A DNA stretch of 64,000 nt from Marasmius tenuissimus (lineage: Eukaryota > Basidiomycota > Agaricomycetes > Agaricales > Marasmiaceae), in the NCBI GenBank assembly GCA_029532415.1, contig JAQOTA010000058.1, positions 1,364,001-1,428,000 of the forward strand. Reading direction: 5' to 3'. Below the pieces are notes generated by a model. That model was not told the DNA's origin and ran no database searches. It was given only the letters and a program-made list of their open reading frames with translations. Position numbers and translations under genes: made by a program. Shown one piece after another: positions 207 through 57,456 of the stretch. Numbering within the stretch: position 1 is the first letter of the stretch; the number at the start of each line of letters is the position of its first letter.

Positions 207-3200
207 ATGGAAAACACGCAAACAGGCTCAGGTACACAGAACAACCACCATGCGCAGGTGCAGTACATCAACTATGGAGGAGATCAGAACATTGCGGGAG
301 GGGAAGCTGTCGATCTAGGTCGCCATTTCTTCAGGAGCTTTACTACGGCGGCCATTGACCGTGAGTCAGCGTCTTGCTCGGTTGAAGACGAAACTAAACG
401 GTTTGATACGCTGGCAGCGCACCAAAGCCTTTGGTACGCAGTGTCAGAAATTGGAGCTTCTCATACCCACAAGCAACAAATTGAACGAGGAGATTGTTTC
501 CCGGGAACCCGTGAGAGCGCTCTCGAGAACATTCGTGAATGGGCACTAGCAGGAGACCAGGAGCCCCCGATTTGCTTACTTACAGGGCCTGTGGGAGTTG
601 GGAAGTCCACCATTGCTATGACTGTCGCCAAGTCGTGGCAGGGGGAAGGTCTCCTTGTTTCCTCGTTCTTTTTCCTTCGATCTGACCCGAAACGTAACAA
701 CCCCTCCGCCCTCGTACCAACTATTGCCTACGGTCTCGTCTCAACAACACCACTCTTACGAAGTCACATTGAGGAGAGGATCTCGAAGGATCCGACGGTT
801 CTGGAAGCCGGACTGGAAGTGCAATTCCGAGAGCTGGTCTTCGACCCCTTATTGATCTATAAGAGGCTCTTGGACTTGTTTCCATCCGAGCGGAAAATCC
901 CCAGAATTGTCATCATTGACGGATTGGACGAATGCGGCGACGAGGAAACCCAGTTGCGCATTCTCTCCGCCATCCGGTCCGTGGTTGAACATACCCCTCA
1001 CCTCCCACTACGGTTTCTTATCTGCAGTCGTCCAGAGTCCTGGATTCAGGAGGCATTCGCTCCTAAAGCTCTTGGTCGGCTCATGAGGACTGTTGCTCTG
1101 GGCGATTCACACGAGTCCGACGGAGACATCACGAAATACTACCTACACCACTTTCAGAATATCGTCAGCAATCCGAAATATAGCCAAGTCCAGTTTACTG
1201 ATCCGTGGCCTTCGAAAGAGGTTTTCGAAACTGTGGTCGGGAGGACCTGCGGCCAATTCGTCTATGCAGTGACTTTCGTCAAGTTCATCAAGTCTGGCCA
1301 TCCGATTAAGCAACTCGATTACATGTTTAAACACACTCCAAACCGTCGACAAGAAATGGCGCCGTACCGCGAACTCGATGCATTATACCATTCCATCCTC
1401 TGCGCCAATTCCGATCACGAGACATTCCTGTCCATTCTTGCAGCTGTTTTTGTCCTTGAGCATCATCTCACGATATCCCCGGCATTTATCGAGTTGCTGC
1501 TTGGGCTACCGTCGGGACAAGTGGCCCTGTCTTTACGGGGGATGCATTCTGTACTGGAGGTTCGCGGCTGGGGGGATAGGATTCGCACGTTCCACACCTC
1601 ATTCAGGGAGTTTCTGTTTGATCGGGACAGGTCGGGTGGTTTTCATGTTGATATGTACTCCCAGAAGCATAACATCATGCGACGGTGGCTCTGGAACCTC
1701 TCAACCACGAACATGGGCATGTATAGGTGGGAAACTATTCATATTTTTCTTTGGGGTCCATCGCTGAGCGTGAATCTCCCTCATGCATCTGCAGCACCGA
1801 ACAACTTTACAGCGACGAAACTAGGCTGTTTTTCACGCAATGGATCTACGTGCTCGCCGCCCCGGCTCCCCAAGTCGGTCCGACCAGGGCTTTATTGGAT
1901 GCATTGCAGGGTGTTGACCTTGCCTCTGTGTTCTTTTGCGAGCAAGCGTCAACTTTCCACATCTATGACACGCCCACGGCTCTTGGGCCGACACGTGTGG
2001 ATATACGTGGTCCAGGTTGGTATAGAACATTTAGGCAGTTAGTCTGGTGGGTCGGAACATATGTGAGTATGGAGTTCGTTGGTCCTGTGACGAGTTGTGA
2101 GTGGCGCACATTGATGATTTGCGATTGCTAGTATGACGATGACGAGGACCTCCGAAGTAAAGGTAGCGATAGTAAAACTTTGGACGAGGGAGCGGCTGGC
2201 AAGGATAATGTCGGGTCCACATCCGCAGACCAAGATCGAGGGACACCCGATGATTGGGACAGCTCTGATCTTGTGGACAGTCTCGTGGACAGGCTTTCCA
2301 TACGTCCTATGCATTTCCATCTCAAACCCCCTCCGGGCACTTCACTCGAAGATGACATCGTTTACTGGACGGTCTTGCTCGCCACTGCATGTACAAATCG
2401 CACTCGCCTGACATCCCGGGCACACAGCGCTGGCGAACGTCAAGCCCCTGCTCAGCTCACAGACTGTCACTGTGATTTTTCCGGAGGGAACCAGCCAGAT
2501 GACCCAAACCACCTTGCGTACCAGGAAGCTTGTATGCACCTTGTCAAGGCTTTCATCTCGGATTTCAAGTGGCTTATTGACAATGGTCCTGAAGAGGAAA
2601 ATATGGTCGAGTTGAGTGGAATCTTTGGGAATCTGGTGGACTCATCCCTCCTCCGACATTGCCGCCTTGAGATGGAGCTCCTTTCCCTCTGTGAGACCCT
2701 TTTCGAACTCGCAGTAAATCCCACGCTCTTGCGAGTGAGACATAGAGACCGGGAGGCACGTAGGGCGGAGTTGCTCAAGTGGATCGGGGTGCGTATTGTT
2801 TTGTGGCTCCTCCACACCAATAACTGCCAGCTACCAACTGACAATCTTCATTCATGCAAGACCTTCCCAGAAGATTATGTTGACAAGGCCGAAAACTTGA
2901 AGTCACGGGTCATGGATCTGTTTCCAGAGGAAGGTCGAGGCAAGATGTTGAGCTCGAGACCTTTAGGAGGGATCTTATTCAAGAATGTTTTCATAACATT
3001 TTGGTCACTGTACCGGAGGGTGTGGTCTTGCTCAATTGGGGAGGTCAGTATGTCCAATAGTTATTGCTTCGCCGCAGCTTGTAACCCACTTCTCAGTCAA
3101 TTTCGATGGGGATAGTACCACACACGGGAACTGGGACCATCTATTTGCTGAGAAAGAGTGGACAGAACCCAGGCTCAAGACCTTCAGGAGCCAGCGTCCC

Positions 3201-3276
3201 AACCGGATATATGTCTGCGAGAGTCCACGGCCACCCTCTATATTCATTGGATTTTCAAGGGATGTGGTTATCTCTA
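207..3276 (+). CDS. NACHT-domain NLR-type STAND NTPase (spliced; probably continues into the downstream kinase region)
   Basis: Predicted signalling NTPase of the fungal NLR type, which detects a cue and oligomerises on nucleotide binding. Residues 6-31 are Gly/Asn/Gln-rich (GTQNN..VQYINYGGDQN). Walker A is GPVGVGKST (about residues 129-137) and Walker B is IVIIDGLDECGD (about 233-244), followed by FLICSRPE, matching NACHT order. The 611-codon uninterrupted frame overruns an intron. Exon 1 is 207-1726. GTGGGA at 1727 to CAG at 1794 removes 68 bp and restores a coding frame. A second intron spans 2063-2131. Exon 3 starts at 2132. A frame change between about 2884 and 2941 needs either a roughly 44-bp intron (2917-2960) or is a lesion. 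Another intron spans 3044-3094. The following frame runs to a GTATGT donor at 3277. No WD40, ankyrin or TPR repeats were recognised; the C-terminal half is unassigned. NACHT identity is firm; internal exon ends are approximate. Confidence 0.8.
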
Positions 3277-3363
3277 GTATGTCACCATTCTACTTCCTTG
3301 AGACTGTCACCCCCTAATGCCTTCAAGCTTACGCTCTAAATGGCCCCCAACATCTTTCTACAG

Positions 3364-4523
3364 AGAGACTTCAGATGGAGCTTAGGGCATTCAGACATCG
3401 GTACTCTTTGCTCAACACAAATGAAGTCAGGAAAATAGACAGCCAGGAGTACTTGGACCGATGGCAGAGTGTATGTTTGACAATTTGTGATGTTGAAGAC
3501 AGGATTAAGATGATGATTTTCAGATGATTGTCAGCGACCTTCCTGGCAAGATAATACCTCCATGCGATAAGACCGCAATCTTGAATGCCATGATCCAACT
3601 CTCGCATGCTTCCGGTATCGCTCCAACGTGTTTACGGATCCAGGATGTTGGCATCAAAGATCTTGTTTATGTTCCAGGTGCGCAATGTGAAATGGCACAA
3701 GTCTTCACAGGGAAGGTGGGACCCCTAGATGTAATGGTGAAACTACTGTGTAAACCACTTAGCGAGGATGATCTGAAGGTAGGTCACCAGGTAGTCAAAG
3801 CATGTAGCTCAGAATTACCACTGATCTTCTTTACTTTGGAGGTTGGCTCGCGGCAAGCCCTGTACTGGCACAAACTAGAACATGCAAATATTTTACCCTT
3901 CTTGGGTTTGTATTACTTCGACAGTTCTCGCACACGAGTTTGCCTTCTCTACCCATGGACGGGACAGGGTGACCTCCTTAAATGTGTGAGTACATACTAT
4001 CTTGCCCCCTTGGGCTATCAGACCTGTCATAACACTTGGTATTATACAGGCCAATCTCCAGGGTGTTGCTGATGGCCTTGGTTATCTTCATGGTGAGAAT
4101 GTCACTCATGGTCGACTGAAAATGGTCAGTCAATTTTGCACTCCATGATTCCCAGAGTCTCTCTTATGCCAGTTGAATTGCGAGCAGTTCAACGTTCTAG
4201 TCGATTCAGCCGGTATTCCTCGTATCGGCGACTTGGGACTTGCGACACTCAGTGGCGACCTAGCAGGAGACAAAAACGAGGACCTTGGTCAGCTCGGACG
4301 TATGGTCTACGAGGTAAGGATCTTGTCACTGGCTATTGTGTCCAACCCATGGGCTCCTCAACCTTCACTAGGTGTATGCAAGTGAATTGCAGTTAGGCTC
4401 GTCGGATGAACTTCAACATTCCCTCGCTATGGCCTGCAGGTTATGGAGCGGGATTGAGAAGTGCTTGAGAGCCAATTCGTCGAAATCCTCGACTTCCATA
4501 GGTTGCACACTTGAGCGTCTAAG
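3364..4523 (+). CDS. TKL-like pseudokinase module (unit A), in frame with the NACHT exons
   Basis: Begins after a CTACAG acceptor with a helical segment (KIDSQEYLDRWQ) that also precedes the pseudokinase at 24.6 kb. After an intron (3471-3523) comes the N-lobe with GKVGPLDVMVKLL (VAIK-type Lys kept), then EHANILPFLGLYYF and a hinge (LLYPWTGQGDL). The catalytic loop reads THGRLKM: the HRD-type Asp is Arg. The DFG position reads GDLGLA, so the metal-binding Asp is kept. No APE motif follows; the segment jumps to LGQLGRMVYE, and the C-lobe is very short. Catalysis is therefore unlikely and a nucleotide-binding or regulatory role is plausible (inference). Further introns lie at about 3779-3840, 3988-4050, 4125-4170 and 4314-4371. 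The module ends at CTAAG|GTATGA (4524), and the frame continues into the next kinase, so it looks like part of one long gene. Confidence 0.6.
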
Positions 4524-4581: not shown

Positions 4582-6404
4582 GTCCCAAACGACTCCACGA
4601 GGTGCAAGATACCAATGCGGGGAGAGACTTTGCTATTAACATTAGTGAGTATCTTTGCCTATCTATACCTGTGTGCTTACGAGCCGGCATATCACAGTGG
4701 GGGAATGGACTCCCACACTAGTGTGCTCTCTGCTGGACGACTACAAGAATATAACCGGACAGACTCAGAGAGATGGGCTCAGGGGAGGCCACAAAGTCTA
4801 CCACGGCGCCGTTAACCTCAGAATCATCCACGGTGAGTCCGATTGTCGCTCATTATAATATGTGTGCTCATCAGGGCACCCGGGCCGTCGTAGGTGAAAG
4901 AACCAAAGGAGCCACTCTATCTACGCCTCAAGCTCTTCTCAGATATCTCGAACAAAGGGAACGGCGCGACCCTGCCCGTTCGCTTGGCCCGAGTGTTGGC
5001 ATACCCAATGCTAGGCCGTCAAGTGGCAAGCCTCTCAAACCCAAAGAACTGGCGAGAAAGGAAAATGGGTTCAGACAGCTGCTTGAGGATCGGGAACAAT
5101 ACGACGAGGTTGTGGGACTTGAGGGCGACGAAGCCCAAGATGTCTTGGACCAATGGCAACGGGTGAGACTACGAATATTTACTTTCCTAGCAATCACTTA
5201 CAAAGGCACCTCGCGATAGCTGAGCGAGTGCACCGAGAATGCAGACCTCCGATCACATGTCATTCAGGCGTCCATTCAGCTTTCTGAACGTTCAGGTCTA
5301 TCTCCTTGGTATCTGCAAATCGACGAAGTGGAAGATCTCAGCGAGCATCCCATCGAATATGGTGATTTCGGGGACATCTGGATAGGAAGCACCCATGGGG
5401 TGAGGGTGGCTGTGAAAGTTTCCCGGCATACACTCCATTCTCAGAAGCATGAACAAATGATCAGAGTGCGTTCAACGCCCGGACTTAAACACCTAGAATT
5501 AATCACGATCTCAAGGCATTCACGCGGGAGGCGCTAATCTGGCGAAATCTGATACATCCCAACATCCTGCCATTCACGGGCATGTATTGGTTCAACGAAG
5601 AACAAACGCAGTTGTGTCTAGTGTCACCGTGGATGGAGAATGGAAACCTTGTCCAGTTCTTAAAAGACTATCCGGAAGTTGATCGCTATACTCAACAACG
5701 ATTGGCAAGTGGTTCGTATGACCACATCCTCCAACCCTATCTCACATTTGACAAACAGGCCGAAGATGTCGCGCAGGGCCTTGCCTATCTTCACGACCTC
5801 CGGATCACGCACGGAGACTTAAAAGGCGTATGTTGATTCGGTACATGTTACGTTTTACTGTCTGCTTAAAGGTTGCATGGTCATCGCAGCACAACGTCCT
5901 CATTACCTCTGAGCACACTGCGTGCATAACCGACTTTGGATTCGCGCGGGTCATCGACAATCAGAGTTTGGCAGCACTCTCTGACACGTCAATTCATCAA
6001 TCTACATCAGTACGTTGGTTTGCTCCCGAACTTTTCAAGAGCGGAACAAAGGCCGCGATGTCTCCAGACAGCGACATCTACTCCTTCGGTTGCGTGTGCT
6101 ACGAGGTTTGTTTTGTAGTGACTTCCTTCTGTGCAGCGGTCCATTGACTAGTTCTACGTAGATCTATGCAAAACGACCACCTTTCTGCGACATCAAGGGG
6201 AACGGAATATATTACATGGTCGTGGTTCAGAACCACCGTCCTGAACTTCCGCGACAAGTGCCAGACGGGATGCGGCGATTAATAGAGAACTGCTGGCGTT
6301 CGGAGCCAAGTTCTCGCCCAAAGGCAGCGAGCATAGTCGAAATGATAGGCGATATGCAGGCAGACTATGCAGATTCGGATGTGTCTAAAGGGGACGTCGT
6401 GTAG
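4582..6404 (+). CDS. Protein kinase, tyrosine-kinase-like group (unit A, catalytically competent by motif)
   Basis: Opens with a degenerate copy of the shared Gly/Asn motif (VQDTNAGRDFAINI, 4602-4644) that ends at a GTGAGT donor. A conserved helical segment follows (KPKELARKENGFRQLL..DVLDQWQ, about 5037-5160), then the kinase domain: glycine loop YGDFGDIWIG, VRVAVKV (VAIK Lys), REALIWRNL (alpha-C Glu), hinge LVSPWMENGNL, catalytic loop ITHGDLKG, then after an intron NVLI, TDFGFAR, RWFAPEL and DIYSFGCVCYE, ending with CWRSEPSSRPKAA. All catalytic residues are present. The stop is TAG at 6402-6404. At least six short introns are needed, for example 5161-5220, 5828-5890 and 6104-6162. The HGDLKGxN loop is characteristic of Agaricomycete TKL kinases. 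No membrane segment is visible, so a soluble signalling kinase is likely. Confidence 0.75.
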
Positions 6405-9075: not shown

Positions 9076-9088
9076 GTACAACCGTTTG

Positions 9089-9730: not shown

Positions 9731-11595
9731 TCAAAGCAAGGACATGAACCATCTTAGTAGCCAATTATAGAGTGTCCCAAACAAACCTTGCACATTACCA
9801 AGTCTAGGGGAGTTTTCAGGTATAATCAGACCTGGGAGAGCTGTCTGGAAACGCCCGATTTTATCTACTATGTCCACTGCCTTTGGACGAGAAGCCGGTT
9901 CTGGATTGCAGCACGACTCCATCAATCGCCGCATCGCATGTGGCGCAAGTCGGGATGGAAGTTTGAGGTGTTGATTCTGGACCCCAACGACGTAGTAAAT
10001 TTTGTGTTCCTCGATGTTTTCGAAGGGAACACTTCTGGCGTAAATCTGCTGGCATGGTTTACTGCCCGTCGCGGCTCGAGAAAATCGAAGTAAGACCGAC
10101 CTCATAGCAAATACAACCAAAGGCATAAATGTCACCCTCCGGAGAGATGATAGACCTTGCGCCACCCCTCAATCGCTCAGGAGCAAGCCAACGTACTGGC
10201 CGCAAGCAACCTGATGTGGTAGAAAGCCCCGTTGCTCCCAAGGTGACGAAGACTCGCGACAATCCGAGGTCGGTTATGCACGCTCTGCGGTCGGGTGTGA
10301 TGAGAACGTTGTACTTTTCTTTGGGTGAGGATTTAATACCCGAAAACACGCATTGACCGTACTTACGCTTTTCAAGTCGCCGTGTGTGATCTTGCGATCA
10401 TGAAGGTAAGCGAGGCCGTGAGCCACGTCTTTCGTCTACGGAGGCTTGTCAGATGGCACTAAACGGTGTTATTAGACAAACCCCTTGCCAATGTTAGTTG
10501 TGTTTCAAGTCCGAGTTCCGGGTGAGCCCTCAAAAATTGGAGAAGGTTCCCATTCTCCATCCACGGCATTACCAAGCATATTTGCTCTTGATTGCCATTC
10601 AGAAAATCTATCCCAGTGAGTGGCAAGATACTGGGGTGATCTAGATTCCTCCAAACCATTGCCTCTCGTATCAACGCCTTGCAAGGGTTGTCAACTGTGG
10701 GGTGCAAAAGTGATGAATTGAGAGCTGCACCTTTACCACCTGTTTGTGTTTCTGTGTATCAGATTGATACCGCATCACTTTCACGGCCATCTTCACACCA
10801 TTCGTATCTCCCGTCCAAATGTCCGCGAAAACGCCAACTTTCACTGGGTGTTGACTGAGATTCTTCATTTCCCCGATCCGTAGACACTCAGGAAATAGGC
10901 CCCTGGCGTTGAAGAGCTTGATGCTTGTATGCACAATTTGCATTTGGAGCCCTGTATCATTGATATATTTGCTCAACTATGGGAAAGTTCGTGTTAGCCA
11001 GCCACCCAGATACCGGAAAGTCCACCAAAGCCGTGACGTACCCATTGCAAATCATCACTTGCTTCTTGTGCATCCTCACCGGCGATTGTCAATAGGTCGT
11101 CATACTGCTCCGAATTGCCAAGTGACTGTAGGAAGGGACTTTCTTCACATCCGAGTTTCTCGGGGGTGGACTGCCTGCCGCTAGATGGCCTGGGACTGGC
11201 GATACGTGTCCTTGGTCTAGTAGACAAACCAGCGGGTGCACGCCGTTCTCTCCCATTAGTACTATCATCTTCAGCGACGTATTTCGATGAGTACAGCGAG
11301 AGAAATCTGATGAACGAGTATAAAGCTCACCGTTGCTCATCGCAAAAGCACCAGAACCGGGACTGTCAAGACCAGGAGGCTGGCGGGGCACCGCTGGGAC
11401 GATATTCAACGTACTGTTGATGATCAGGTCCGCATACCGATGGTTGTTGACGGTCATTGGCCCAGAACCACTGTTGTAGTTTTGGTCCCTCCTGTGGCTC
11501 GGATTTTGCGTCCCAGAAGCACTATTGTTGGCATTTGGGTTGTGAGAGAAGTCGGGATGGTCCCCTCCGTAGAAATTTCTCCGACGTCCGAGCAT
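9731..11595 (-). CDS. Protein kinase, TKL group, with Gly/Asn-rich N-terminal segment
   Basis: Start chosen at the ATG at 11595 (MLGRRRNFYGGD), just upstream of the shared segment SGTQNPSHRRDQNYNSGSG, which runs into MTVNNH and a GTATGC donor (about 11443). A short linker and helical segment follow, then GVFADIWTG (glycine loop), GVKMAVKVM (VAIK Lys), REAMVWRNLDHPSILPLTG, hinge VMPWMENGNL and KDVAHGLAYLHDRKITHGDLKS. Next come NVLITPDRRACITDLGLSR (DFG is DLG, Asp kept), RWLAPERL, GDIYAFGCICYE and SRPKAVDIVDKIGR. All catalytic residues are present. The stop is near 9731. An upstream in-frame ATG at 11706 exists but adds a cysteine-rich stretch not shared with paralogues. It is the only full kinase of the family on the minus strand. 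Confidence 0.7.
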
Positions 11596-16820: not shown

Positions 16821-18720
16821 ATGGGCAAATTCTACGATTCAAAAGACCCGAAAGGTTTCGACGACGTCAACGGTGATAATCGTCAAGCCCTGGACAGTCT
16901 TTCCGGCGGCAACTCCCACATTCACAATCTCCACACCGGCACTGGCGTACAGAACAACAATGATGGAGGCGGGCAGCAGAATGTGAACTATTGGACTCAC
17001 GGTGGCATTGGACCCAACAACGGTTAGTCGAGTATCCTGGTCTCTTCAAAGTATCTGTATGGTAACGAGTCGTCGCCACATCGTAGATGACCCCCCGCCG
17101 TACGCTTTTAAGGCAGACGTTGGTTCGAGCAACAGCAGTCGAGGCGGATTTCGGGAACAGCACGTCAACAGTGAGGTTTAATCTTGACCCGTTGGATTTT
17201 CGTGTGCTCACCTGCAGCGTGTATGCTCTCTCTCCAGACGACTCATCACCTCGTGCCCATGCTCCTGCAAGAGACTGGGAAACAAAGGAACGGCGCGAGC
17301 TTATGACCCTTCCACCACTACCAAACGCTGGCCAGCCCCTCAGCCCGAAGGAACTCGCAAGAAAAGAGACCGTGTTCAAGCAGCTGATCGACGACCCAGT
17401 GCATTATGAACAAGTTATGAGATGCGAGGGCTACGACGCGCAACGTGTTCTAGACAACTGGCAATTGGTGAGATTCAAATCAAATCCCTTCGTGTCGTGG
17501 ACCAGACACTCAACAAGAGCTTCTTCTCGACAGATGATCGAGTGCACCAGGGATAGGGGTGTTCGCACTCACCTCATGCGTTCAATGCTCGAGCTCTCGA
17601 ACAATTCAGGTCTTTTCCCGCAGTGTTTGGAGATCGAGCAAGTGAAGGATCTCAGCAAAGGCTCCGCATACGGCGGCTATGCGGATATCTGGACGGGGAA
17701 GATTGGTGGCATGAAGGTGGCGGTGAAAGTGGTCCATGGAAGTCGCGATTTTCTGAAGCGTGAACGAGCGATCAAGGTGCATTTCAACGTCTGTGTACAG
17801 GGCTTATCAGGGCTGACGCACAATCTCACAAAGGCCTTCATGCGAGAAGCGATAATCTGGCGAAATTTGAACCACCCAAACGTCGTACCGTTCACGGGCA
17901 TGTATTGGTTCAACAAGGACCAGAAGGAGATTTGCCTAGTATCGCCGTGGATGGAAAATGGAACCCTTCCAGAGTTTTTGAAAAGCCATCCCGAAGTCGA
18001 TCATGCCACTCAACGACGACTGGCAAGTGATTCATCTGACTCTATCATTCAACGCTATCTCATACTCTTGAACAGGCGAAAGGTATTGCTCAAGGCATCG
18101 CCTATCTTCACGACCTCCAAATCACGCACGGAGACATGAAAGGCGTAAGTCGATTGAGTACATGTTATAGATTACCGACCGCTCAAAGTTACACGATCAT
18201 TGTAGGCCAATGTCCTCATCACCCCCGAGCACACTGCCTGCATAACCGACTTTGGGCTCTCGCGGATCACCGACAGTCAGAAGTCGAGAGGACTTTCCAA
18301 CACGACACATGAATTGGGACCAGCACGTTGGCGTGCTCCTGAACTTTTGAAATATGGGAGGTCGGCAATGTCTCCCGCAAGCGACGTGTACGCCTTTGGT
18401 TGTGTGTGCTACGAGGTACGCTTCTTCAACTACTCCTTCGCTGTGGAACGGGAAGCTGAAGAGAAGTCCGTAGATCTACGCGAAACGCATTCCTTTCGTA
18501 GACTTTACGGAATATGGGGTGTATAACTTTGTCGTAATGGAAAAGCGAACCCCGAGCCCCCGCCAGAAACGCCATATGAGATGCGGCAGTTGATGGAGGA
18601 ATGCTGGGGCGCGGAACCGGGTGGTCGCCCGAAGGCAGCGAGGATAGTGGAAAGGATAGGTGGTATGGAGGCAGATCGCCCGGGTTTGTATGTGCCTGAA
18701 GGGATTTTGGTGGATATATA
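16821..18720 (+). CDS. Protein kinase, TKL group, with Gly/Asn-rich N-terminus (C-lobe frameshift)
   Basis: The N-terminus MGKFYDS..KGFDDVNGDN matches that of the pseudokinase at 23980 (KGFDRNGDN). The shared segment is TGTGVQNNNDGGGQQNVNYW, ending GPNN at a GTTAGT donor (17024). Then come a helical segment (SPKELARKETVFKQL..RVLDNWQ), YGGYADIWTG, MKVAVKV (VAIK Lys), REAIIWRNLNHPNVVPFTG, hinge VSPWMENGTL, ITHGDMKG, NVLITPEHTACITDFGLSR, ARWRAPELL and DVYAFGCVCYE. At about 18550-18556 the frame breaks by one base: the C-terminal helices (MRQLMEECWGAEPGGRPKAA) lie in another frame and stop at TAA 18718-18720. A one-base lesion or a sequencing error would explain this. As written, the protein would end about 20 codons past the break, lacking the last C-lobe helices. 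The promoter is of the shared type. Confidence 0.7.
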
Positions 18721-19560: not shown

Positions 19561-20392
19561 ATATTGTGACGAGCGCCTTGAACGGTCTGTCCGGAGCGTG
19601 ACCACCAACTCGATCTTCGCGATTTGCGATTCAAGCTACGTAATCCATAGCGCCGCCCTAGGCGACAAGTTCCCTCTTGGAGCAAGTACTGTACGTGCAA
19701 TCCTCCTACATGCTTATCCTTCACCTGAAATCCTTACTCAAGTGATTTTCAGGCCTGGGACTCGGAACGAGCTGAGATGCTAGTCAATTGAAGTGCCTGA
19801 AGTGCCTGATATGTCAAGTGTAGTCGAAAAAGGTGGGAACGGCGATCCTCCAGCACTCAGGTCGACTGACTTTGCTAGATACTAATAGGGCGTAACGATG
19901 GAAATCATTGCACTGGAAGACGGTGCATCATAATCATAGGTACTAGAAGGTACGAATCATGAAGCTCACCCTGGAGCACTGATATGTGCATGGTCGAGGT
20001 GCTGTGTGATCAATCTGGGCTGGACAGGTCCGGAAGATTATTTTTCGTCGCGTCCGGAGTCGTGCGGTAGTGTCCATTGGATAAAGATGCGGTCTGCTTC
20101 GTTTGCATCATTGCGAATGTTATCATTTCATTGGAGCCAATATTCTCACCCCCTCTATTACTTTCATCAAAGATGGTCGCCCTTTCGGCATAATCTCCGT
20201 CACCTGCAGATGTGAGAGATATGTCACTGGACAAGATTTGTGTGATAGTACCGCCCGAGCGTGCTGTATAAACACACACGATGCATCCTGATGCATCTCC
20301 CGTTTCTCCAGTACCATCGCTTCACGACTTCAAACGTCTTATCTCCATTCCAAATCCCTCCGGCCCCGACCTAATCTAGTCTGGTACGCCTC
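19561..20392 (+). promoter_or_regulatory. Intergenic region and promoter of the GNAT gene
   Basis: No convincing gene. A TATA-like TGCTGTATAAACACAC sits at about 20259-20274, some 120 bp upstream of the ATG at 20393. The C/T-rich TCCATTCCAAATCCCTCC stretch just before the ATG is a usual basidiomycete leader. Confidence 0.4.
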
Positions 20393-21427
20393 ATGTTACC
20401 CGTTACCTCTTCATTCAGCACTACCGTGTATTTCAAGCCTTCACAGGTTCCCAACGACGTCTGGGATGTCTTGAAGGCTCATGAGGTTGACGCTAATTGC
20501 GTCCTTCCCGTCATGATCGAGGAGCTTCCCAACATGATCAAGGAGCTAGCTCTGGAGCATTCTGGCGCCGTCCCCCGCGGCGCCAGCCAATTCTGGATTG
20601 TGTGCCGCAGTGGACAGGTTGTTGAACTTGTCCTATCTTGCACAAACAACGCAATGGGCGCCTACCCAATTTTCATCGTCGCCCTCTGTCAGCTTTCGGT
20701 GAACCATCTGCAGTCCCGAATCCAGGTCATGGCCGAAAAGCTGTTAGATGCATCCTCCCTCGAAAGAGTGTTCAGTGTCTTTGCTCCCGATGACATTGCC
20801 TCTATCTTTGCCCAGAAGTGGTCCCGCCTCACCGGAGTCAGCATCCTACCTGAACCGTACTATGCCACCAAACTTTCCTACTGCACTAAAGACACTTTCA
20901 ATCGAAGAGGCCTCACCCAAAATCCGGCATGGGATCTCCGTCCCGCGAGTGACGAGGACCTGCCTGGCGTCGCCGAGCTGTGCCGTCAGTTCGCTGCCAC
21001 GTCCGAGCCCTTCATCCTCGATGAAGAGGGAGCCTTTAAAGAGGCCCAGTACCTCATTCAGAGCACCCAAGTTTGGGTTCACACCGTCTCCACTACCCAC
21101 TACACCGATATCGCCTCCATTGTCGCGTTCACGCGTAACAGTGAAAACAACGCAACGTTAACGAAGGTGTTCACCAATCCCGAATGGCGGGGATATAAAT
21201 GCGCTCAGCGACTGGTTGCTCGCGTGTGCAGGGAGCTCTTGTTCCACCAAGGCAAGAAGAGCGTAGCAATATTCGTCGCTCATGATAATGGAGCCGCTTC
21301 CAAGGTGTATCACAACGTCGGATTTGGTGGGCTGTATCCGTCGAGTCATGGCCTCTCTTCCGCCTCTGGCTGGACCGAGCTTGGCTTCGACCCTGCAAAA
21401 GTTCAGCTTGGACACTGGTCCAGATAA
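20393..21427 (+). CDS. GNAT-family N-acetyltransferase (acyl-CoA N-acyltransferase fold), 344 aa
   Basis: Intact single-exon gene. The C-terminal 150 residues look like a GNAT domain: LRPASDEDLPGVAELCRQFA at its start, a beta strand TLTKVFTNPEWRGYKCAQRL as the acetyl-CoA binding motif A (classic Q/RxxGxG/A loop as WRGYKCA), and FVAHDNGAASKVYHNVGF as motif B. The N-terminal half (about 1-170) contains no recognised motif; in many fungal proteins of this type it is a second diverged GNAT-like fold. The substrate is unknown. Neighbours are pseudogene fragments, so context gives no functional clue. Its clean frame contrasts with the decay around it. Confidence 0.8.
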   Translation: MLPVTSSFSTTVYFKPSQVPNDVWDVLKAHEVDANCVLPVMIEELPNMIKELALEHSGAVPRGASQFWIVCRSGQVVELVLSCTNNAMGAYPIFIVALCQLSVNHLQSRIQVMAEKLLDASSLERVFSVFAPDDIASIFAQKWSRLTGVSILPEPYYATKLSYCTKDTFNRRGLTQNPAWDLRPASDEDLPGVAELCRQFAATSEPFILDEEGAFKEAQYLIQSTQVWVHTVSTTHYTDIASIVAFTRNSENNATLTKVFTNPEWRGYKCAQRLVARVCRELLFHQGKKSVAIFVAHDNGAASKVYHNVGFGGLYPSSHGLSSASGWTELGFDPAKVQLGHWSR

Positions 21428-23979: not shown

Positions 23980-25722
23980 ATGGTCGAATTCCGCAACGAG
24001 TTACACGGTTCGAAAGGTTTCGATCGTAACGGCGATAACGGCGTCAGCAATCTCGGGGGCGAGGGTCGTGGCGCTGTTCGGACAGACGATCCTGTGCTTG
24101 CCACTCGGGATATCCGCGCAGACGTCGAACAGTCTGCTCCTGTATCACCTCCGGATTACGATCTTTATGGTCTTCCACCAGTCATACGAGTCGGTCTAGT
24201 ACCATCTGAATACTCTCTGCTCACCTCGAGCGGTGGCCACCGTGGCTCCGATTCTGATCCTATGAATGCGTTCCCGAACTCAATCACCACCCCAGCCCTT
24301 CACCTCGTCAGCAGCTTCACCGGAGGAAAGAATAACAACAACTTCTTCTGGGGTACCCAGAACATCCATAAAGGTCGAGATATGAATCTGAATACGGGTA
24401 CTCGGACCATGGTCGTCAACAGTGCGTTCGATTACCTCCTTCAGTTCTTGATAATTGTGTCTGACTGCCTTCAAGATTATATGAGCAGTGCAAATGAGGA
24501 GGGGGATGAAGACGACGACGACGAAGACAAGCCTTTCTCCGAGAAGATGCTCAAGATACAGATAAGAGCGTTTAACCGCCAACGTTCCAAGATCAACGAA
24601 ACCGAACTCCAGAAAATAGACGGTCAGGAGTACTTGGACAGGTGGCAGCGAGTAAGTCGGATCCCACTACCTATGCGAACGATTGGAACTCATAGTACAC
24701 TGTGCTTAGATGATCATTAGCGATCTCTTTGGAAAGATTATCTTGCCGGCTGACAGAACTGCGCTTCTCGATGCTATGATCCAGTTCTCTCGTATTTCCG
24801 GCTTCGCTCCGAAGTGTCTTCGCATTCAAGATGTTGGCATTCAAGATCTAATTCCTATTCCGGAGTATCAGTCTGCGGACGTCGAACTCTACAGAGGGAA
24901 AATAGGACACGCGGATGTAGCCGTGAAGGTGCTGAAGGAACATCCTAGACCTGACGACAAGCGACTAGAGGTCAGTTGCCGCGTATTTCTGACTCGCTGT
25001 GCTTCATACTCACCCTTTGGATCTTCTATTCTTGAAGACATACTTGCAACAAGCTGTAGTGTGGCGAAAGCTGGAACATCAGAACATCTTGCCCTTCCTG
25101 GGTTTGTACTACTTTAATCACGCTCGCTCGCGGGTTTGCTTGGTCTCTCCCTGGATAGAAAACAGTGCTGCTCAAGACGAGATCGACTCTGAAGATTGTG
25201 TAGGTCCTCTTTCGACTTCGGCTGTCTCCAACGTGTCGGGTAACAAGTTGATTTAGGTCAAGGGTATCGCTGACGGCCTCGCATATCTGCACGACCAAAA
25301 GGTCGTTCATGGTCATCTGAGTGCTGTTAGTCGGTCTTCCACAGTACCATTCTCGATATCATTCTCATGATCCTCTTTTGAACAGCCCAGTATTCTCATC
25401 GATTCAGACGGCAATCCTCGCATCGGCGACCTGGGGCTTGCACAACTCCTTGGACAGGCAGGAGACTTAAGTGAAGATGTGTTTGAACTCGGACGTCTGT
25501 CCTTCGAGGTGAGCCGCTGCTCTTGTCATGGCATCTCAATCGTTTCCTGAGCATTGCTCTTATATATGCCAGCTCTTCGGGGGTACATCAATGAAAGACA
25601 AAGATGGGCCTCGCCAACCTGAGGGCATGCCTAACCCCGTGTGGGACGTGGTCAAGAAATGTTTGAGCACCAGTCCATCCTCCCGGCCTGGCGCGTCTGA
25701 GATATGTGGAGCCCTGAACTAG
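23980..25722 (+). CDS. TKL-like pseudokinase, stand-alone, apparently intact
   Basis: The N-terminus shares KGFDRNGDN with kinase 2. The shared segment is WGTQNIHKGRDMNLNTGTR then MVVN, ending at a GTGCGT donor; the intron 24422-24475 joins it to an acidic linker (EEGDEDDDDED). Next is the helical segment (KIQIRAFNRQRSKINETEL, GQEYLDRWQR), an intron (about 24653-24709) and the N-lobe: GKIGHADVAVKVL keeps the VAIK Lys. The alpha-C Glu is lost (LQQAVVWRKLEHQNILPFLG). The hinge is VSPWIENS. The catalytic loop is VVHGHLSAV: Asp, Lys and Asn are all replaced. RIGDLGLAQLL keeps the DFG Asp. The activation segment and APE motif are absent, and the C-lobe is short (WDVVKKCLSTSPSSRPGASE). The stop is TAG 25720-25722. 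A non-catalytic nucleotide-binding or scaffolding partner of the kinases is the best inference. Confidence 0.65.
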
Positions 25723-34252: not shown

Positions 34253-34995
34253 CTACATTAACGATCTCGCGCGACATATCAAACACGAGTACAGGTAGCT
34301 CGTAATTCCTGAACCTCTTAGACGCTCAATGGAACATAAAATGAACACGAATGAGCCGGGAAATTGGTTTTCGGAGTCAATGATATGGCCCACAAATCCG
34401 ATAGGGCTCCATACACATATCCCGCCCAACAAGGGCCAACAAACAACATTCAAGACGGCAAGAACAGCAACTTCGGCAATGCCATTCAGAACTTCAATCA
34501 TGGAAGAGATCTTGTTCAAAATAATGCCAGGGGACGAATCACTATCAACAGTACGCCCGATGCTTCCTTTCCGTTTATCGCTTCCCGGTCCTGACTGCTT
34601 TCTTTGAGATGGCGGTAGAGATGATTTGGACAACGAGGACGACAACGAAGACCAACCTCTTGACGCAGTGATGTTCAAGAAGGAGCTCAAGGCTTTCAAA
34701 CGCCAATACCCTCTCAATGAAGATGAGCTCAAGAAGCTGGACGGCCAAAATTACTTGAACAGGTGGCAGCGCGTAAGTTAGCACACTTCCGAGTCTTGAG
34801 GAAGGTCTTTGACCATGTGCATCGTGCTCAGCTTATTATCACTACTCTATCTGGTGAATTGTCCCTGGGCAGTAGCAAGGCCGATATTCTGAATGCCATG
34901 GTTAAATTGTCCAATGTTTGCGGTCTCACTCCAAAGTGTCTTTGAATCCAGGATGTTGGCATCAAAGTTGGTGATCCTATTCTGGATGCCCAGTC

Positions 34996-36836: not shown

Positions 36837-39800
36837 AGGGCCCGAAGGCAAAAGTAATACAAAAGACTCTCCACCTTCGACCCAAACTCCTGTCCCAGAT
36901 CCGCAAAGAAAAGGATTGCAAGATTACACCCATTTGCCCATCGTCGCTCAAAACCATGATGTGCTGTCCCATGCAAGTCACTTCAACAACAGCAACAATG
37001 CTCATTTCTCTGCCATCGGTGGCAACCAGCTCAACAGTAACGCAAACAGGACACAGAATATCAATTGTGGGAGGGATCATAACCTCAACATCAGTGAAAC
37101 GGGAAATGCATGGAGGTATGGATCCATGCGGTTCCATGCGGTTCCATACCTCCGGCATACCGGTATGAAGCAGGGGGGGCATGCATGGAGTGAATAATCT
37201 GGCCTATGCCATCCATGTGTCCATACCAGCCATGATTGCGGCTGGTTTTGTGCGATCCTTCCATGCATCTCCATACATTGATGCCGGCTAGGACAGAAGA
37301 AAATAAATGAATTCATTCCATACTATATACGGGTACAAAACTACACTACACAAAGAGAGAATACCACTACACCAGCTGAGCAGATACCATCAGTGTCTGA
37401 TTCACCTACAAGACCATAGCTGGTTTCCTGTCTTCATGCTCACACCCATATATCTTAATCATCGGAAATCAATGGTCCATTGACTTGAATAATCAAGATA
37501 AAATGAACACACTTACCATGTGCCTTGACGGCGCAATTTGACGACGCAAATGCAGTTGAGTTCATAACCTTGGGGCCGATTGAGCACAGATGCTGTCAAA
37601 ACCTGTTATCTTTAGTGAATCATCAGCATCGAAAAAGGAATGTGAATAACAATTGCGCACCATCAATCTTTGACTCGTACTACTCGTGAACTCTGTGGTT
37701 TGACCGTTTGAGCTGCCCCTTCAGCCAAGATTGACATGTGTTGAAACACTGACATCCCTGTATTAGCAAAATCAATAAACAGATATCCAAGTAAATATCG
37801 AGACACGTACTTTGGGCGTATATAGATAAAATAAATGTCAAGTTTGATGGTTTCTTGTAGACATGAGATTTGTGGGATTGAAGAAAAAGTGCCTGCAACT
37901 GGCAATAGATTGATTGGTCTGTGATGTCCTGACAAGCCACTCGTAATTTCCCAAGAAACTGTACAGTTTCTCACGGGATCCTATAACTGACGCGGAGAGA
38001 CTGTTTTTTATATGGGTGCAATGTCCCTTTGTGCTTCGTTCGTAAGTAAAACACCATATGTATTGTATCCTAGAGACTACTGAACCAATAATAAAATTTG
38101 TGAGCTTTGAGTGAGCAGACTGAGTATCCATACCTCCATACCTTCCATACTCCCTCAGAGGTATGGACATTTTTGGCAGGAATTGGTATGGGCTGCATGG
38201 AGGAGGTAAACTATCCATGCCTCCATGCGCCCCATACCTCTCATGTATTTCCCGTTTCACTGATGAACAATGGCTCGGGACCCTTAACTGTTAACAACAG
38301 TGAGCTCGTTCGCCTATTCGTATCTTAATGCTCACAAGTTGGCACTACGTAGAGGGGCAACAGGTGCTGAATTCAGTAGCGTACCCCCTGCCATCCATCT
38401 CTGCGGGGTATGACAAAGATTCAGGTGAAGGGACACAGAACGTTGACGCAGGGAGGGATCAGGATGCCAACCACGGCGGTGGTGCTTTCATGACTGACAA
38501 CGGTAGGTCCCAACTTCACTCGCCAATCAAAGCTTGCTGATTGTGGCACATCGCTGAAGATAACAGGAACGTAAGAGGCTCTTCAGCTACTGCCCAAGCG
38601 CCTATGGATGAAATGGAGCAGCGTGAACCAGCCCATTTGCCCAGTCCAACTGTCCAAGTGATGGCATACCCAATGCTAGGCCACCAAGCGGCAAGCTTCT
38701 CAGCTCCAAGGATCTCATCAGGAAAGAAGATGCGTTCAGAAATCTGCTTACCGATCAAGAAGAATATGAAGTTGTCCTGGGACTTGACGGCGATGATGCC
38801 CAGAGTGTCTTGGACAATTGGCAACAGGTAAGGTTCAACAAGATTTCTTCCTCATAGTAATCATTTATGAAGAATTCTCAATAGCTGAGCGAGCACACCC
38901 AGGATGTGAATCTCCGATCGCGTATCATACATGCGATCATCAAGCTCTCCAAAAGCTCACGCCTATTTCCTCAGTGTCTGTGGATCGGAGGAGTGGAAGG
39001 TGTCAGCGAGTATCCCGTTGAATATGGTGGTTTCGCAGATATCTGGACAGGGAGCGTTGGTGGCGTCAGGGTCGCCCTAAAGGTTGTCTGGTACAGATTC
39101 CATTCTCAGGAGAAGCATGAACCAATGATAAAGGTGCGGTAAATCCTATACCTGTATAATGCCTTCAGAACCTGAAGCTGCCGACTCCGATTTCAAGGCA
39201 TTCGTGCGGGAAGCAATGATCTGGCAAAATTTGATTCACCCCAATGTTTTGCCATTCACAGGCATGTCTTGGTTCAATCCAGCCCAAGGCCAGCTATGCC
39301 TGGTATCACTGTGGATGGATAATGGCAACCTTCACCAGTTCTTAACTGACAATCCGGACGTTGATTGTGCCACTCAGCAAGGATTGGTGAGTGTTTTTTT
39401 TTTGGTTGGCTACGCTATTCCACGCCATCTCACACGTTCAAATAGGTGAAAGATGTCGCACAGGGACTAGCATACCTTCACAACCTCAAGATTACTCACG
39501 GCGACTTGAAAGGCATGAGTGCTCCTAGTCCATGTTCTGTAACGTTCTCCAAACACTCATACCATTAACATAGTACAGTGTTCTCGTTTGTGACAACCAG
39601 ACTGCGCGTATAACCGACTTTGGACTTTCTTGGGTCATCGACGATCAGAAGTTGACAAGCCTGTCTAACATGGCGGGCCGTCAAGGACCAATGTGTTGGC
39701 TTGCTCCCGAACTTCTGGAGAATAGAAGGGGTATGGTTTCTTAAGCGAGTGAAATTTATGCCTTTGGCTGCGTGTGCTATGAGGTGTGTTTCACATTAAC

Positions 39801-40414: not shown

Positions 40415-41620
40415 TCAGTACTCATGACAATGAATTGTTGGAGGATTGATATATTGTCCGAGTGTGGGTGCAAAGATGGTCCACGAAACGCTTTCTTCTC
40501 CATTTTCCCTCCCTTTCTCGATAACTTCCTTTCTTTCCATCCCTCTCCTTCTTCCACCTACAACCCCCGCCGAGCCTCTAGATGCGAGTGCTGATGCAGA
40601 ATACCGTGGTTTCCAGTGCTCAACACAGTCAAAGGTTTCTTCATCGGCACATTCGTAGGCCCAGCAGAGGGATTGCAGACGCTGTTCGAGTAGCATCCAC
40701 GGGTTGAATATAGTGTGTTGTTAGCTACTGTGACTGGGTCGACCCTCATCATCCCGCTACAATTTTCTGACCCCAAACCTCGGTGAGGGATACGTGACAG
40801 AGGTCAAGAGGAGGTTGAAGGCAAGGTTGTAGTCAACGATATGGCATTTGAGGTACCATGAGCATCATTCCCCATGCCAGCTTGAGCCTCGGTCAGCATT
40901 TTCTCAATCCTCTGACCTTTTTTATCCCGAGCAACTTCCAATCCCTTCTGCACAGTCCTCATGTCTAGATTGCCTGAAGCATCCCACACAATGGCATTGG
41001 TCGTACTCCCCAAATGTACAATTGTAGATTCGAAAGTGTCACAAAAAGACTGGACGACAGGAGAGAAATGTGACAGGTGAGTCTCCAGCATCTCCAGGTG
41101 ATGCAAAAGTTGTTTTTGACGGCAGTGAATGTGATCGCGAAGTGTGATCGTCTGATCCCGAGACATGAGCAAAAGTCTTTTGATGTAACAAGTCAAGGGA
41201 AGAGAGAGTATCAAGTGCAGTAGATGCATTGAAGGATGTGTCAGGCAGTGGTAGACTTGTTGTTCATGGTGGGCCTTCGAGATCTCCTGCAGCTTGTGGG
41301 TACCTATCAAAATCCTTTTGCCAGATATGCGGTCACTCCACTGGTTCAACCCATGTCTGGACAGTGTGCTGTACGTTTTGAGAAGAGCTTGATGTTCTTG
41401 AGGGTCATCAAGGACCCGAGATGACTCTTATGACCGTATTTGGATTATAAGATGGGTTGTTTTTTGCCAACGCATATACTGGAGACGCTGTTGGCATAAC
41501 AGAATGGTAGCTGTAATGTGGTTTGATGACGGGAGTGGTAGCATCTAGAGCTGCTGCGCTAGTGGGTGAGGGAAGTCAGGAGAGGAGGTGGGTGTTGACA
41601 AGACAACTGTAATGGACGTG
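40415..41620 (-). pseudogene. VPS54-like 5' fragment (copy 8)
   Basis: Minus-strand text near 41315-41280 gives KDFDRYPQAAG in one frame, the counterpart of RRKDFDGYLRAV. Then QKQLLHHLEMLETHLSHFSP and VVQSFCDTFE (about 41135-41030) parallel QEKLSHYLDTLEIHLS. The longest frame (181 codons, 40804-41349) continues to QKGLEVARDKKGQRIEKML, the expected next helix. Frames still switch between blocks, so it is a remnant. It aligns with the copy at 14.55-15.24 kb. Confidence 0.5.
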
Positions 41621-54943: not shown

Positions 54944-54959
54944 CTTAAGAGGGGGATAC
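54944..54959 (+). other. Polypurine tract of the Ty3 element
   Basis: AAGAGGGGGATAC lies directly before the 3' LTR (TGTTACATCC at 54960), the expected place for plus-strand priming. Confidence 0.7.
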
Positions 54960-55674: not shown

Positions 55675-55703
55675 CTTCCTCTCTTCTACGCCCGCGAACA
55701 TCC

Positions 55704-57456
55704 ATGGTAAATTCCGCAACAAGTTACACCATCCAAAAGGTCTCCGCCACAACGGTGATAATGGCGTTAGCAATTTCGTTGGTGAGAGGCATGGCGCCAT
55801 CCCAACAGACTGTACGATCCTGTACCTGCAGCTCGGAATATCTGTACAGGCATCCAACAGTCCGCTCCTGCAACACCTCTGAGTTACAATCGTTATGGTC
55901 GCCCACTCGTGAAGGACTATCTGGACGCTCTTTACTCACATCGAGCAGTGGCTCTCGCGGCTCCGATTCTGGCCTCATGAATGTGTTCCCCAACTCAACT
56001 GCCACCTCATCCCTTCACTTTAACAACAGTTTTACCAGAGGAAAGAACCCCTTCTACGGTACCTAGAACATCCATAATGGTCGAGATATGAATCTGAATA
56101 TAGGTGCCTCGACCACAGTTGTCAACAGTGCATTCCATTCTCTCCTTCAGTCCTTTTTTTCATTGACCGACTTCAAGATTATGTGAACTGCGCAGAGGAT
56201 CAGGGTGATGAAGATGACGACGAAGACAAGCCTTTCTCCAAAAAGATGCTGAAGATACAGATAAGAGCATTCAACCGCCAACATTCCAAGATAAACAGAA
56301 CCGAACTCAAAAAAATAGATGGTTAGGAGTACTTGGACAGGTGGCAGCGAGTAAGTTGGATTTCACTAGCCATGCGAATGATTGGAACTCATCAGTATGC
56401 CACGCTCAGATAATCATCAGCGATCTTTTTGGAGAGATTATTCCGCCAGCTGACGGAACTGCCCTTCTTGATGCCATGATCCAGCTCTCTTGTATCTCCG
56501 GCCTCGCTCCGAAGTGTCTTTGCATTCAGGATGTTGGCATTCAAGGGCTGGCCCCTATTTCTGAGCATCAGTCTGTGGACGTTGAACTCTATAGAGGGAA
56601 GACTGGAGACGTGGATGTAGCCATGAAGGTGCCAAAGGAACATCCTAGAGCCAACGACAAGCAACTAGAGGTCAGTTTCTGTGTGTTTGACTCACTGCAA
56701 TTCATGCTCACCCTTTGGGTTATCTGGTTCCATAGATATACTTGCAACAAGCTGTAGTGTGGTGAAAGCTGGAACATCAAAACATCTTGCCCTTCCTGGG
56801 TTTGTACTACTTTGATTACGCTCACTCACAGGTTTGCTCAGTCTCTCCCTGGATAGAAAACACTTCCGCGCAGGACGAGATTGACCCGAAGATTGTGTAG
56901 GTCCTCTTTTGACTTCAGCTGTCTTTAACCTGCTGGTTAACAGTTCATTTAGGCTAAGGATATTGCTGACGGCCTCGTTTATCTCCACAAACAAAAGCTC
57001 ATTCATGGCCATTCAAGTGCTGTCAGTCGGTCATTTACGGTCTCTACCATTTTTGAAATCATTCTCATGACCCTCTTTCGAACAGTCCAGTGTCATTGTT
57101 GATTCAGACGGGAATGCTCGCATCAGCGACATAGGACTTGCGCAGCTCCTCAGCAAGACAGTAGACCGAAGTGAAGATGTGTTTCAATTTGGGCGTTTGT
57201 CCTTCGAGGTAAGCCGCTTGTCTTGTCGCGGCATCTCAATTGTTCCCTGAGCGTTGCTCCTCTGCCAGCTCTTCGGGGTACATTAACGAAAGACATCGAT
57301 GGGCTTCGCCAACCTGTGGGCATGCCTGACCCAATGTGGGACGTAGTCAAAAAATGCTTGAGCACCGGTTCATCCGAGTGGCCAAGCGCGTTTGAGATAT
57401 CTGGAGCCCTGTACCAGAACACGTATGTGGAGCCTAAGGGATTGATTGTAACTTAA
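55704..57456 (+). pseudogene. TKL-like pseudokinase, broken paralogue of the 24 kb gene
   Basis: Aligns along its length with 23980-25722. The ATG at 55704 is followed by a one-base deletion relative to the intact copy (ATGGTAAATTCC versus ATGGTCGAATTCC). TAG at 56064-56066 interrupts the shared segment (NIHNGRDMNLNIGAS, TTVVN), and TAG at 56324-56326 hits the GQEYLDRWQ helix. The N-lobe still reads GKTGDVDVAMKV; the catalytic loop is LIHGHSSAV and the DFG site is RISDIGLAQLL. The Ty3 element sits between this gene and its promoter at 46.7 kb. Clearly non-functional. Confidence 0.8.

What the first reader, a model, noticed from the sequence alone, without database searches (positions are those of the whole stretch)
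207..57456. Candidate NLR-kinase signalling family linked by a shared Gly/Asn/Gln exon
Nine segments share a core like [T/I/V]QN[I/V/F]xxGRDxNxN: NACHT gene (222-285, diverged: GTQNN..VQYINYGGDQN), 4602-4644, about 11520-11443 (minus), 16930-17023, 24345-24421, 34449-34550, 37036-37091 plus 38265-38301, 38420-38502 and 56055-56118. In the kinases and pseudokinases the segment usually ends in (V/I)xNN exactly at a splice donor. Fungal NLRs are known to pass signals to partner proteins through short shared amyloid motifs (HET-s, sigma, PP types), and animal RIPK kinases use RHIM motifs with a short Q-centred core. Here the shared motif would connect a NACHT NTPase to protein kinases and pseudokinases. 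That is an inference, but it could be a basidiomycete kinase-based amyloid signalosome not described to my knowledge.
Basis: partly seen in the sequence, partly recalled or inferred. Interest (0 to 1): 0.92.

Follow-up and report, generated by a model that had tools for sequence, protein, structure and literature searches.

The report
Mushroom immune receptors and kinases share motif
In a Marasmius mushroom, many NACHT immune-receptor-like proteins begin with the same short, asparagine-rich tag that starts a family of protein kinases and dead kinases, which suggests that receptor and kinase may be wired together by that tag, although nobody has yet tested whether the tags bind.

Summary
The NACHT N-terminus scores 16.5 bits (E 9e-4). 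One place (4602) is inconclusive, two (37036, 38265) are one copy split by a 1.18-kb inverted-repeat element, one (56055) carries an in-frame stop. The sharing is genome-wide: a 61-residue kinase N-terminus gives 97 matches in the window's own genome (inferred Marasmius tenuissimus), 51 of them upstream of a NACHT domain; coordinate shifts give a mean of 1.6, maximum 8, one shuffled query gives 0. In a motif-blind random sample 14 of 20 NACHT loci carry it. Other families and four stand-alone genes carry it too. Of 120 kinases, 18 have it, in one Marasmius clade of 21. Most likely it is a homotypic, amyloid-like NLR signalling motif with kinases and pseudokinases as partners. Binding, amyloid and function are untested. 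No curated amyloid-motif profile is passed where scanned, and the motif is N-terminal on both sides, unlike known effectors.

The parts
207..1900 (+). NACHT/NPHP3_N-type STAND NTPase gene (first large exon, end approximate)
   Evidence: ORF 171-2042; PF24883 E 1.3e-23 and PF05729 E 4.4e-9; ATG at 207
225..302 (+). shared motif at the N-terminus of the NACHT protein
   Evidence: 16.5 bits, E 9e-4, with a profile that contains no NACHT sequence
3509..4400 (+). pseudokinase K1 next to the NACHT gene (catalytic loop HGR; extent approximate); no motif found upstream
   Evidence: translations, DLG at 4218; no motif hit there
4602..4646 (+). weak motif-like segment in front of kinase K2 (about 4.6-6.4 kb)
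   Evidence: 7.7 bits, E 0.47: inconclusive; kinase exon PF07714
9731..11772 (-). kinase K3 (HGD, DLG; extent approximate)
   Evidence: translations and catalytic-residue scan
11443..11529 (-). shared motif of K3
   Evidence: 34.2 bits
16821..18721 (+). kinase K4, 7-exon model (HGD, DFG); the deposited homologue P0001 has another second exon
   Evidence: splice model; P0001 91% identical over 83% of the model
16938..17022 (+). shared motif of K4, ending at a GT donor at 17023
   Evidence: 17.3 bits for 16938-16991; donor
23980..25550 (+). pseudokinase K5 (HGH, DLG), 6-exon model, 3' end uncertain
   Evidence: splice model
24325..24421 (+). shared motif of K5, ending at a GT donor at 24422
   Evidence: 27.3 bits
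34463..34550 (+). shared motif of kinase-like gene K6 (about 34.4-36.6 kb), donor at 34551
   Evidence: 12.6 bits; DLG at 36513; HGD seen, activity unclear
37021..37088 (+). first half of the first motif copy of kinase K8
   Evidence: 23.0 bits for 37021-37098
37089..38265 (+). 1.18-kb element with 24-nt terminal inverted repeats that splits the motif exon
   Evidence: arms 37089-37112 and 38242-38265, 96% complementary
38263..38299 (+). second half of the first motif copy of K8, donor at 38300
   Evidence: 9.6 bits, E 0.12 on its own
38421..38502 (+). second motif copy of kinase K8 (HGD, DFG; kinase exons to about 39.9 kb), donor at 38503
   Evidence: 37.2 bits, best in the window
56040..56127 (+). 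motif of pseudokinase K9 (HGH; to about 57.4 kb) with an in-frame TAG; donor at 56128
   Evidence: 15.5 bits for 56067-56126; TAG

Best explanation
The segment is a homotypic recruitment motif of the NLR-associated, amyloid-like kind. SHOWN: a roughly 25-35-residue N/Q/G-rich motif (G-S-G-T-Q-N-N-N-N ... T-Q-N-[IV]-N-x-G-R-D-Q-N-x-N-x-G-x-G-x-[MF]-x-V-N-N in its kinase form) stands at the N-terminus of many NACHT proteins in this genome and of one clade of kinases. INFERRED: when a NACHT receptor oligomerises on its ligand, its clustered motifs template the same motif on kinases and pseudokinases, concentrating the kinase so that it phosphorylates itself or a neighbour; pseudokinases and the other motif-bearing families would be scaffold, substrate or executioner, and the stand-alone motif proteins amplifier or brake. 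It would thus work like an NLR-to-effector amyloid relay whose output is a kinase, as in the RIPK1/RIPK3 necrosome.
For: Kinase-only profile finds the window NACHT and the listed places, next best 3.1 bits. Kinase query in the own genome: 97 matches, 51 within 3 kb upstream of a NACHT on the same strand, against a mean of 1.6 and a maximum of 8 in 1,000 coordinate shifts and 0 matches for one composition-exact shuffle. Reciprocal query joined from two NACHT loci: 45 matches, 38 NACHT, 6 at C20 kinases, 1 other. Motif-blind random sample: 14 of 20 NACHT loci; loci taken by NACHT score 3 of 8; loci taken by kinase score 0 of 8; reversed control 0 hits in 11,693 fragments. Among 21 distinct DNA cores the recurrent residues use several synonymous codons (Arg AGG, CGA, AGA, CGG) and nonsynonymous differences are scarcer than synonymous ones (pN/pS 0.14 between kinase and NACHT cores, 0.34 at the four free positions), so the protein is what is kept. 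The only sigma-profile matches in the genome, all four sub-threshold, lie upstream of NACHT domains, two of them at motif matches. AlphaFold2 finds the motif region of P0016 disordered (pLDDT about 33) in front of a confident helical segment and a kinase domain, as expected for a latent polymerising tag; it is equally expected for any disordered tail.
Against: No direct evidence of binding, amyloid or co-regulation. No curated amyloid-motif profile is passed. Known fungal partners carry the motif at the C-terminus of the effector (PMC9815663, sections 19 and 28 read), here it is N-terminal on both sides. The nearest gene to the window NACHT (K1) has no detectable motif. 102 of 120 related kinases give no motif match. 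Six of 20 random NACHT loci and 5 of 8 top-scoring ones had no hit. The search of the large protein collection with the P0016 N-terminus found kinases only, three of them with itself.
Confidence: 0.58

Rival explanations
1. The motif is a disordered N/Q/G-rich localisation, condensate or regulatory tag that several fast-evolving families carry; it brings them to the same place or under the same control but does not template an amyloid, and NACHT and kinase need not touch.
For: AlphaFold2 leaves the region disordered; several kinds of protein carry it, including large families without a recognised domain, more than a one-to-one receptor-effector relay needs.
Against: Low-complexity tags tolerate drift, whereas here the Q-N and G-R-D-x-N positions recur across families while codons differ (the cores were picked by a pattern that favours this); one shuffled tag of the same composition matches nothing.
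Confidence: 0.27
2. Exon shuffling or gene conversion has spread a first exon among gene families in dynamic clusters; the shared segment is a by-product with no signalling role.
For: In the kinases the motif is usually on exon 1 and ends at a donor; the kinases seem to have acquired it once; the region is rich in transposons and the genome has large tandem arrays.
Against: Synonymous differences are near saturation while the residues are kept, which copying alone does not explain; the carriers are not a random set: of 97 matches, 51 are NACHT, 13 lie at 10 genes of the C20 kinase clusters, and most of the rest fall in a few families.
Confidence: 0.1
3. Chance similarity of compositionally biased N-termini.
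For: The segments are N/Q/G-rich.
Against: Reversed-sequence controls: best 3.2 bits in the window, 0 of 11,693 fragments at E<1 in all loci; shuffled query 0 matches against 97.
Confidence: 0.01

Closest known systems
Agaricomycete NLR05/08/22/29/44 amyloid-like motif metafamily (Wojciechowski et al. 2022, PMC9815663)
   Same: Short N-termini of mushroom NACHT proteins, many copies per genome; Table 1 lists no neighbouring and no established effector partner for these five motifs (#nei. 0, #eff. 0; sections 19 and 28 read).
   Different: That survey looked for partners at C-termini; it does propose, in two species, pairs between C-termini of MLKL-like (BaMLKL) proteins and NACHT N-termini (Moniliophthora roreri, Fibularhizoctonia, some of the latter with NLR20 or NLR22 instances). 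Here the partner is a kinase with the motif at its N-terminus. Identity with those motifs could not be tested: logos and profiles are in figures and supplements that were not readable.
Sigma motif (Pfam PF17106 NACHT_sigma)
   Same: On NACHT N-termini; the only four matches in the genome lie upstream of NACHT domains.
   Different: All four are below the curated cut-off (best 19.8 against 27.6 bits); the window segments that I scanned (NACHT, K3, K4, K5, first half at 37 kb) do not match.
HET-s/NWD2 (HRAM) and PP relays of ascomycetes
   Same: A short motif shared by an NLR N-terminus and a second protein.
   Different: There the second protein is a HeLo, HeLo-like or enzymatic effector with the motif at its C-terminus; no HET-s profile match in the sequences scanned here.
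RIPK1/RIPK3 necrosome (described in PMC12881547 and PMC10197012, passages seen)
   Same: Kinases and a pseudokinase substrate brought together by a short motif would be the animal analogue of the proposed mechanism.
   Different: RHIM core (recalled) absent; the fungal motif is N-terminal and shared directly with NACHT proteins. Works-like only; no homology shown.
FslK, fungal kinases close to tyrosine kinases, expanded in Agaricomycetes (PMC3937382, passages seen)
   Same: The kinase domain of P0016 matches PK_Tyr_Ser-Thr best and solved tyrosine kinases (EGFR, Src, Lyn, Lck) in sequence and fold; Agaricomycete expansion.
   Different: FslK membership was not tested by phylogeny; the word 'N-terminal' does not occur in the paper's main text.

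Membership tests
NLR-associated amyloid signalling motif | same short motif at the N-terminus of an NLR and in a separate partner protein | tested here: met
NLR-associated amyloid signalling motif | partner motif at the C-terminus of the effector, usually in a neighbouring gene | tested here: not met
   motif is on the first exon of the kinases; the NACHT's nearest gene K1 has none
NLR-associated amyloid signalling motif | forms amyloid and cross-seeds | not testable with these tools
   needs peptides or fusions
Sigma motif (PF17106) | match above the curated profile cut-off | tested here: not met
   0 of 4 genome matches over the cut-off; class D 14.2 bits against 27.6
HET-s prion-forming motif (PF11558) | match to the Pfam profile | tested here: not met
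   no match in Pfam-A scans of 10 window ORFs, 5 proteins and 8 segments; the exons of K6, K8 and K9 were not scanned
Agaricomycete NLR05/08/22/29/44 metafamily | match to the published motif profiles | not testable with these tools
   profiles and logos are in figures and supplements, not held
Agaricomycete NLR05/08/22/29/44 metafamily | dozens of NACHT N-termini with the motif in one mushroom genome | tested here: met
   65 of 191 merged NACHT loci by BLAST-type matches; 14 of 20 in a random sample
RHIM | [IV]-Q-[IV]-G core (recalled) | tested here: not met
   cores read QN[IV]N-x-G
Protein kinase (PK_Tyr_Ser-Thr / TKL-TK type) | profile match and catalytic residues | tested here: met
   P0016 183.5 bits; HGD in K2, K3, K4, K8, but HGH in K5 and K9 and HGR in K1, which should be pseudokinases; K6 unclear
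FslK | position in the FslK clade of a kinase tree | not tested
   no reference FslK sequences were fetched

The most novel reading that the evidence does not exclude
Marasmius has a modular mushroom signalosome in which one homotypic motif is the common currency of most NACHT receptors, active tyrosine-kinase-like kinases, their pseudokinase relatives, two further expanded families (53 loci, and up to about 97) and stand-alone motif proteins: a fungal counterpart of the necrosome, with a kinase rather than a pore protein as the first effector, and a role for part of the expanded mushroom kinase families.
Probability: 0.35. Interest if true: 0.93.

Novelty: new variant of a known kind. Interest (0 to 1): 0.8.

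Why it matters
The published survey of fungal NLRs reports a large Agaricomycete motif group on NACHT N-termini for which it lists no neighbouring or established effector partner, apart from proposed pairs with MLKL-like proteins in two species (PMC9815663), and the functions of the expanded mushroom kinases close to tyrosine kinases are stated as still to be determined (PMC3937382). If the shared motif is a relay, both gaps narrow at once and can be tested with short fusions: NLR signalling in mushrooms would run through kinases, as in some plant and animal pathways (recalled), instead of only through pore formers. In ten searches of open-licence PMC papers, no preprints, I saw no report of such a link in the listings and in the passages and sections that I opened.

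Tried and rejected
Chance or composition: the reversed and shuffled controls speak against it. DNA repeat: codons differ. Membership in sigma or HET-s families: no profile passed. RHIM: core absent. Kinship of the unassigned family D to kinases: inconclusive (one usable sequence). A mating-type context: the open frame at 40804-41427 (minus) has a sub-threshold Mating_N match (17.7 against 21.4 bits), but no Homeobox_KN match lies on contig C20 (3 in the genome, on C28 and C5), so I dropped it. A search of the large protein collection with the first 140 residues of P0016 gave 3 kinases including itself; it missed even known carriers such as P0012, so it says little about other genera. The stand-alone protein found only its M. 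tenuissimus counterpart. Rfam: no match at the gathering thresholds.
Full report
WHAT THE WINDOW IS. The window is contig C20, 1364001-1428000, of a 71-Mb, 70-contig assembly. The kinase at 16.8-18.7 kb is 91% identical over 83% of its model to a deposited Marasmius tenuissimus protein whose contig length, 1,730,079, equals that of C20, so I infer that species. The window holds a NACHT gene, kinase and pseudokinase genes, and transposons.

THE OBSERVATION. I built a profile from 14 motif copies of eight deposited Marasmius kinases, with no window and no NACHT sequence, and ran it on all six frames of the window. The NACHT N-terminus scores 16.5 bits (E 9e-4). The place at 4602 is not significant (E 0.47). 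The places at 37036 and 38265 flank a 1.18-kb element with 24-nt terminal inverted repeats and together look like the first motif copy of the kinase whose second copy is at 38421, by comparison with P0006, which carries two copies in a row. The 56-kb copy has an in-frame stop. Six of the places end one base before a GT donor after the final N.

THE MOTIF BEYOND THE WINDOW. A 61-residue N-terminus of a kinase from another Marasmius (P0016) was run against the own genome: 97 matches at E<=10. Of these, 51 lie within 3 kb upstream, same strand, of a NACHT/NPHP3_N domain, at 51 distinct loci, 13 lie in the C20 kinase clusters and 33 elsewhere. NACHT list: the 150 listed hits and the 150 listed, merged into 191 loci; both lists were cut off by the tool and only the best candidates are scored, so counts are lower bounds. 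The 13 C20 matches are at 10 genes, three of them window genes (K3, K5, K8); for one (C20:1519748) I did not see the kinase domain, it is placed there by its pseudokinase-like N-terminus. Shifting coordinates gives a mean of 1.6 and at most 8 in 1,000 trials. One shuffle with exactly the same composition gives no match. A query joined from two NACHT loci returns 45 matches, 38 NACHT, 6 at C20 kinases, 1 other. Both queries together mark 65 of 191 NACHT loci.

AN UNBIASED SAMPLE. I drew 20 of the 150 NACHT hits at random, blind to the motif, and read 1.1 kb upstream. With the kinase profile 14 of 20 have a hit at E<1 over all 11,693 fragments; of the eight loci taken by NACHT score 3 have one, of the eight loci taken by kinase score none; the reversed control has no hit at all. 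Part of the C20 kinase loci are the genes behind the training set and match by construction.

OTHER CARRIERS. Of the 33 other matches I fetched DNA for 23 (20 stretches). By DNA they are: family D (10 matches; motif, then a protein of no Pfam family with conserved stretches such as LWMDxRRGVFCRGP), family E (4 matches; the first half of the kinase N-terminus, FSNAxxxxxGDHANFxxIAGN, then a protein of no Pfam family), four matches in two genes on C29, four stand-alone genes on C59 with open frames of 94, 95, 113 and 114 residues that end soon after the motif (one is close to the deposited hypothetical protein PM082_023744), and one on C39 that resembles NACHT copies. Of the ten not fetched, one (C9) is next to a family D match, eight coincide with full-length matches of the family E query and one (C3:3913975) with a weak one. 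The family D exon gives 53 matches in the genome; 9 of 53 have a motif match within 1 kb upstream. The family E N-terminus gives 99 matches, two of which are C20 kinases; only four of the others were checked in DNA.

THE KINASES. Of the 120 relatives listed (793 were found), 18 carry the motif at E<0.05; eight of these are in the training set. The 18 are from M. tenuissimus, Marasmius sp. AFHP31 or M. crinis-equi. In a kinase-domain tree they sit in one clade of 21 (support 0.98; 0.91 when K5 is added); the other three, P0002, P0007 and P0011, have by my reading a degenerate, a shifted and a missing N-terminus. The window pseudokinase K5 joins as sister of that clade (support 0.77). This fits one acquisition. 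K2, K3, K4 and K8 keep HGD; K5 and K9 have HGH and K1 HGR, so these three should be inactive; K6 is unclear. The kinase domain of P0016 is closest to tyrosine kinases in sequence and fold. AlphaFold2 shows disorder over residues 1-157, a four-helix segment at 168-233 and the kinase fold. A deposited AFHP31 protein, P0047, joins such a kinase to a NACHT domain in one chain, which may be a true fusion or a merged gene model.

HOW IT PROBABLY WORKS. The sequence is conserved as protein: among 21 distinct DNA cores the recurrent Arg uses four codons and pN/pS between kinase and NACHT cores is 0.14, 0.34 at the four free positions (cores were chosen by a pattern, which favours conservation at the fixed positions, and synonymous differences are near saturation). 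A short, repeated Q-N motif at the N-terminus of an oligomerising NTPase and of other proteins is the anatomy of an NLR signalling motif. I therefore think that receptor oligomers template co-assembly of kinases and pseudokinases. Binding, amyloid state, direction of signalling and output are inference. The disordered-tag rival remains open.

COMPARISON. Known relays: HET-s/NWD2, sigma, PP, PUASM (PMC9815663: outline, passages, sections 19 and 28). That paper lists no neighbouring or established effector for the Agaricomycete motifs NLR05/08/22/29/44; it searched C-termini and proposes pairs with MLKL-like C-termini in Moniliophthora roreri and Fibularhizoctonia. I could not compare the profiles. 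Sigma (PF17106) is approached but not passed: four sub-threshold matches in the genome, all upstream of NACHT domains, two at motif matches (C23:1146058, C34:136564). PMC12881547, PMC10197012 and PMC4986451 (passages) mention kinase domains among fungal NLR N-terminal domains or joined to HeLo-like domains; in the passages seen there is no motif shared with separate kinases. I saw no report of the link in ten searches of open-licence PMC.

VERDICT. I rate it a new variant of a known kind, interest 0.8.

Noticed in passing
own genome, contig C59 (L050-L053): Four stand-alone open frames of 94-114 residues end soon after the motif; possible adaptors or brakes of the proposed relay. P0121, a deposited hypothetical protein on a contig of the same length as C59, is 93% identical to one.
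   Followed up: partly
own genome, C3 2.80-2.99 Mb, C7, C25, C26: Family E: up to about 97 places with the N-terminus FSNAxxxxxGDHANFxxIAGN, which is also the first part of two C20 kinases; four checked in DNA; no Pfam family.
   Followed up: partly
own genome, C59, C9, C7, C10: Family D: 53 matches of a protein without Pfam match, several with the motif at the N-terminus.
   Followed up: partly
window 37089-38265: Element of 1.18 kb with 24-nt terminal inverted repeats inserted in the motif exon of a kinase.
   Followed up: partly
window about 45-56 kb: Ty3/gypsy-type LTR element (capsid-like, RT, RNase H, integrase, chromodomain), ending just upstream of pseudokinase K9.
   Followed up: no
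window 60348-61999, minus: KDZ transposase fragment (just below cut-off) and CxC4 cysteine cluster.
   Followed up: no
window 40804-41427, minus; frames that look similar near 7.4-8.0 and 14.9-15.6 kb: Minus-strand frames between the kinases with similar-looking stretches (by eye); one has a sub-threshold match to Mating_N, but no Homeobox_KN match lies on C20.
   Followed up: partly
window 20375-21427 and 27463-27879: A GNAT acetyltransferase and a bestrophin-like channel fragment.
   Followed up: no
P0047, P0040, P0065 (deposited proteins): Related kinases joined to a NACHT domain (P0047) or to a homeodomain (P0040, P0065) in single deposited proteins; fusions or merged gene models.
   Followed up: no
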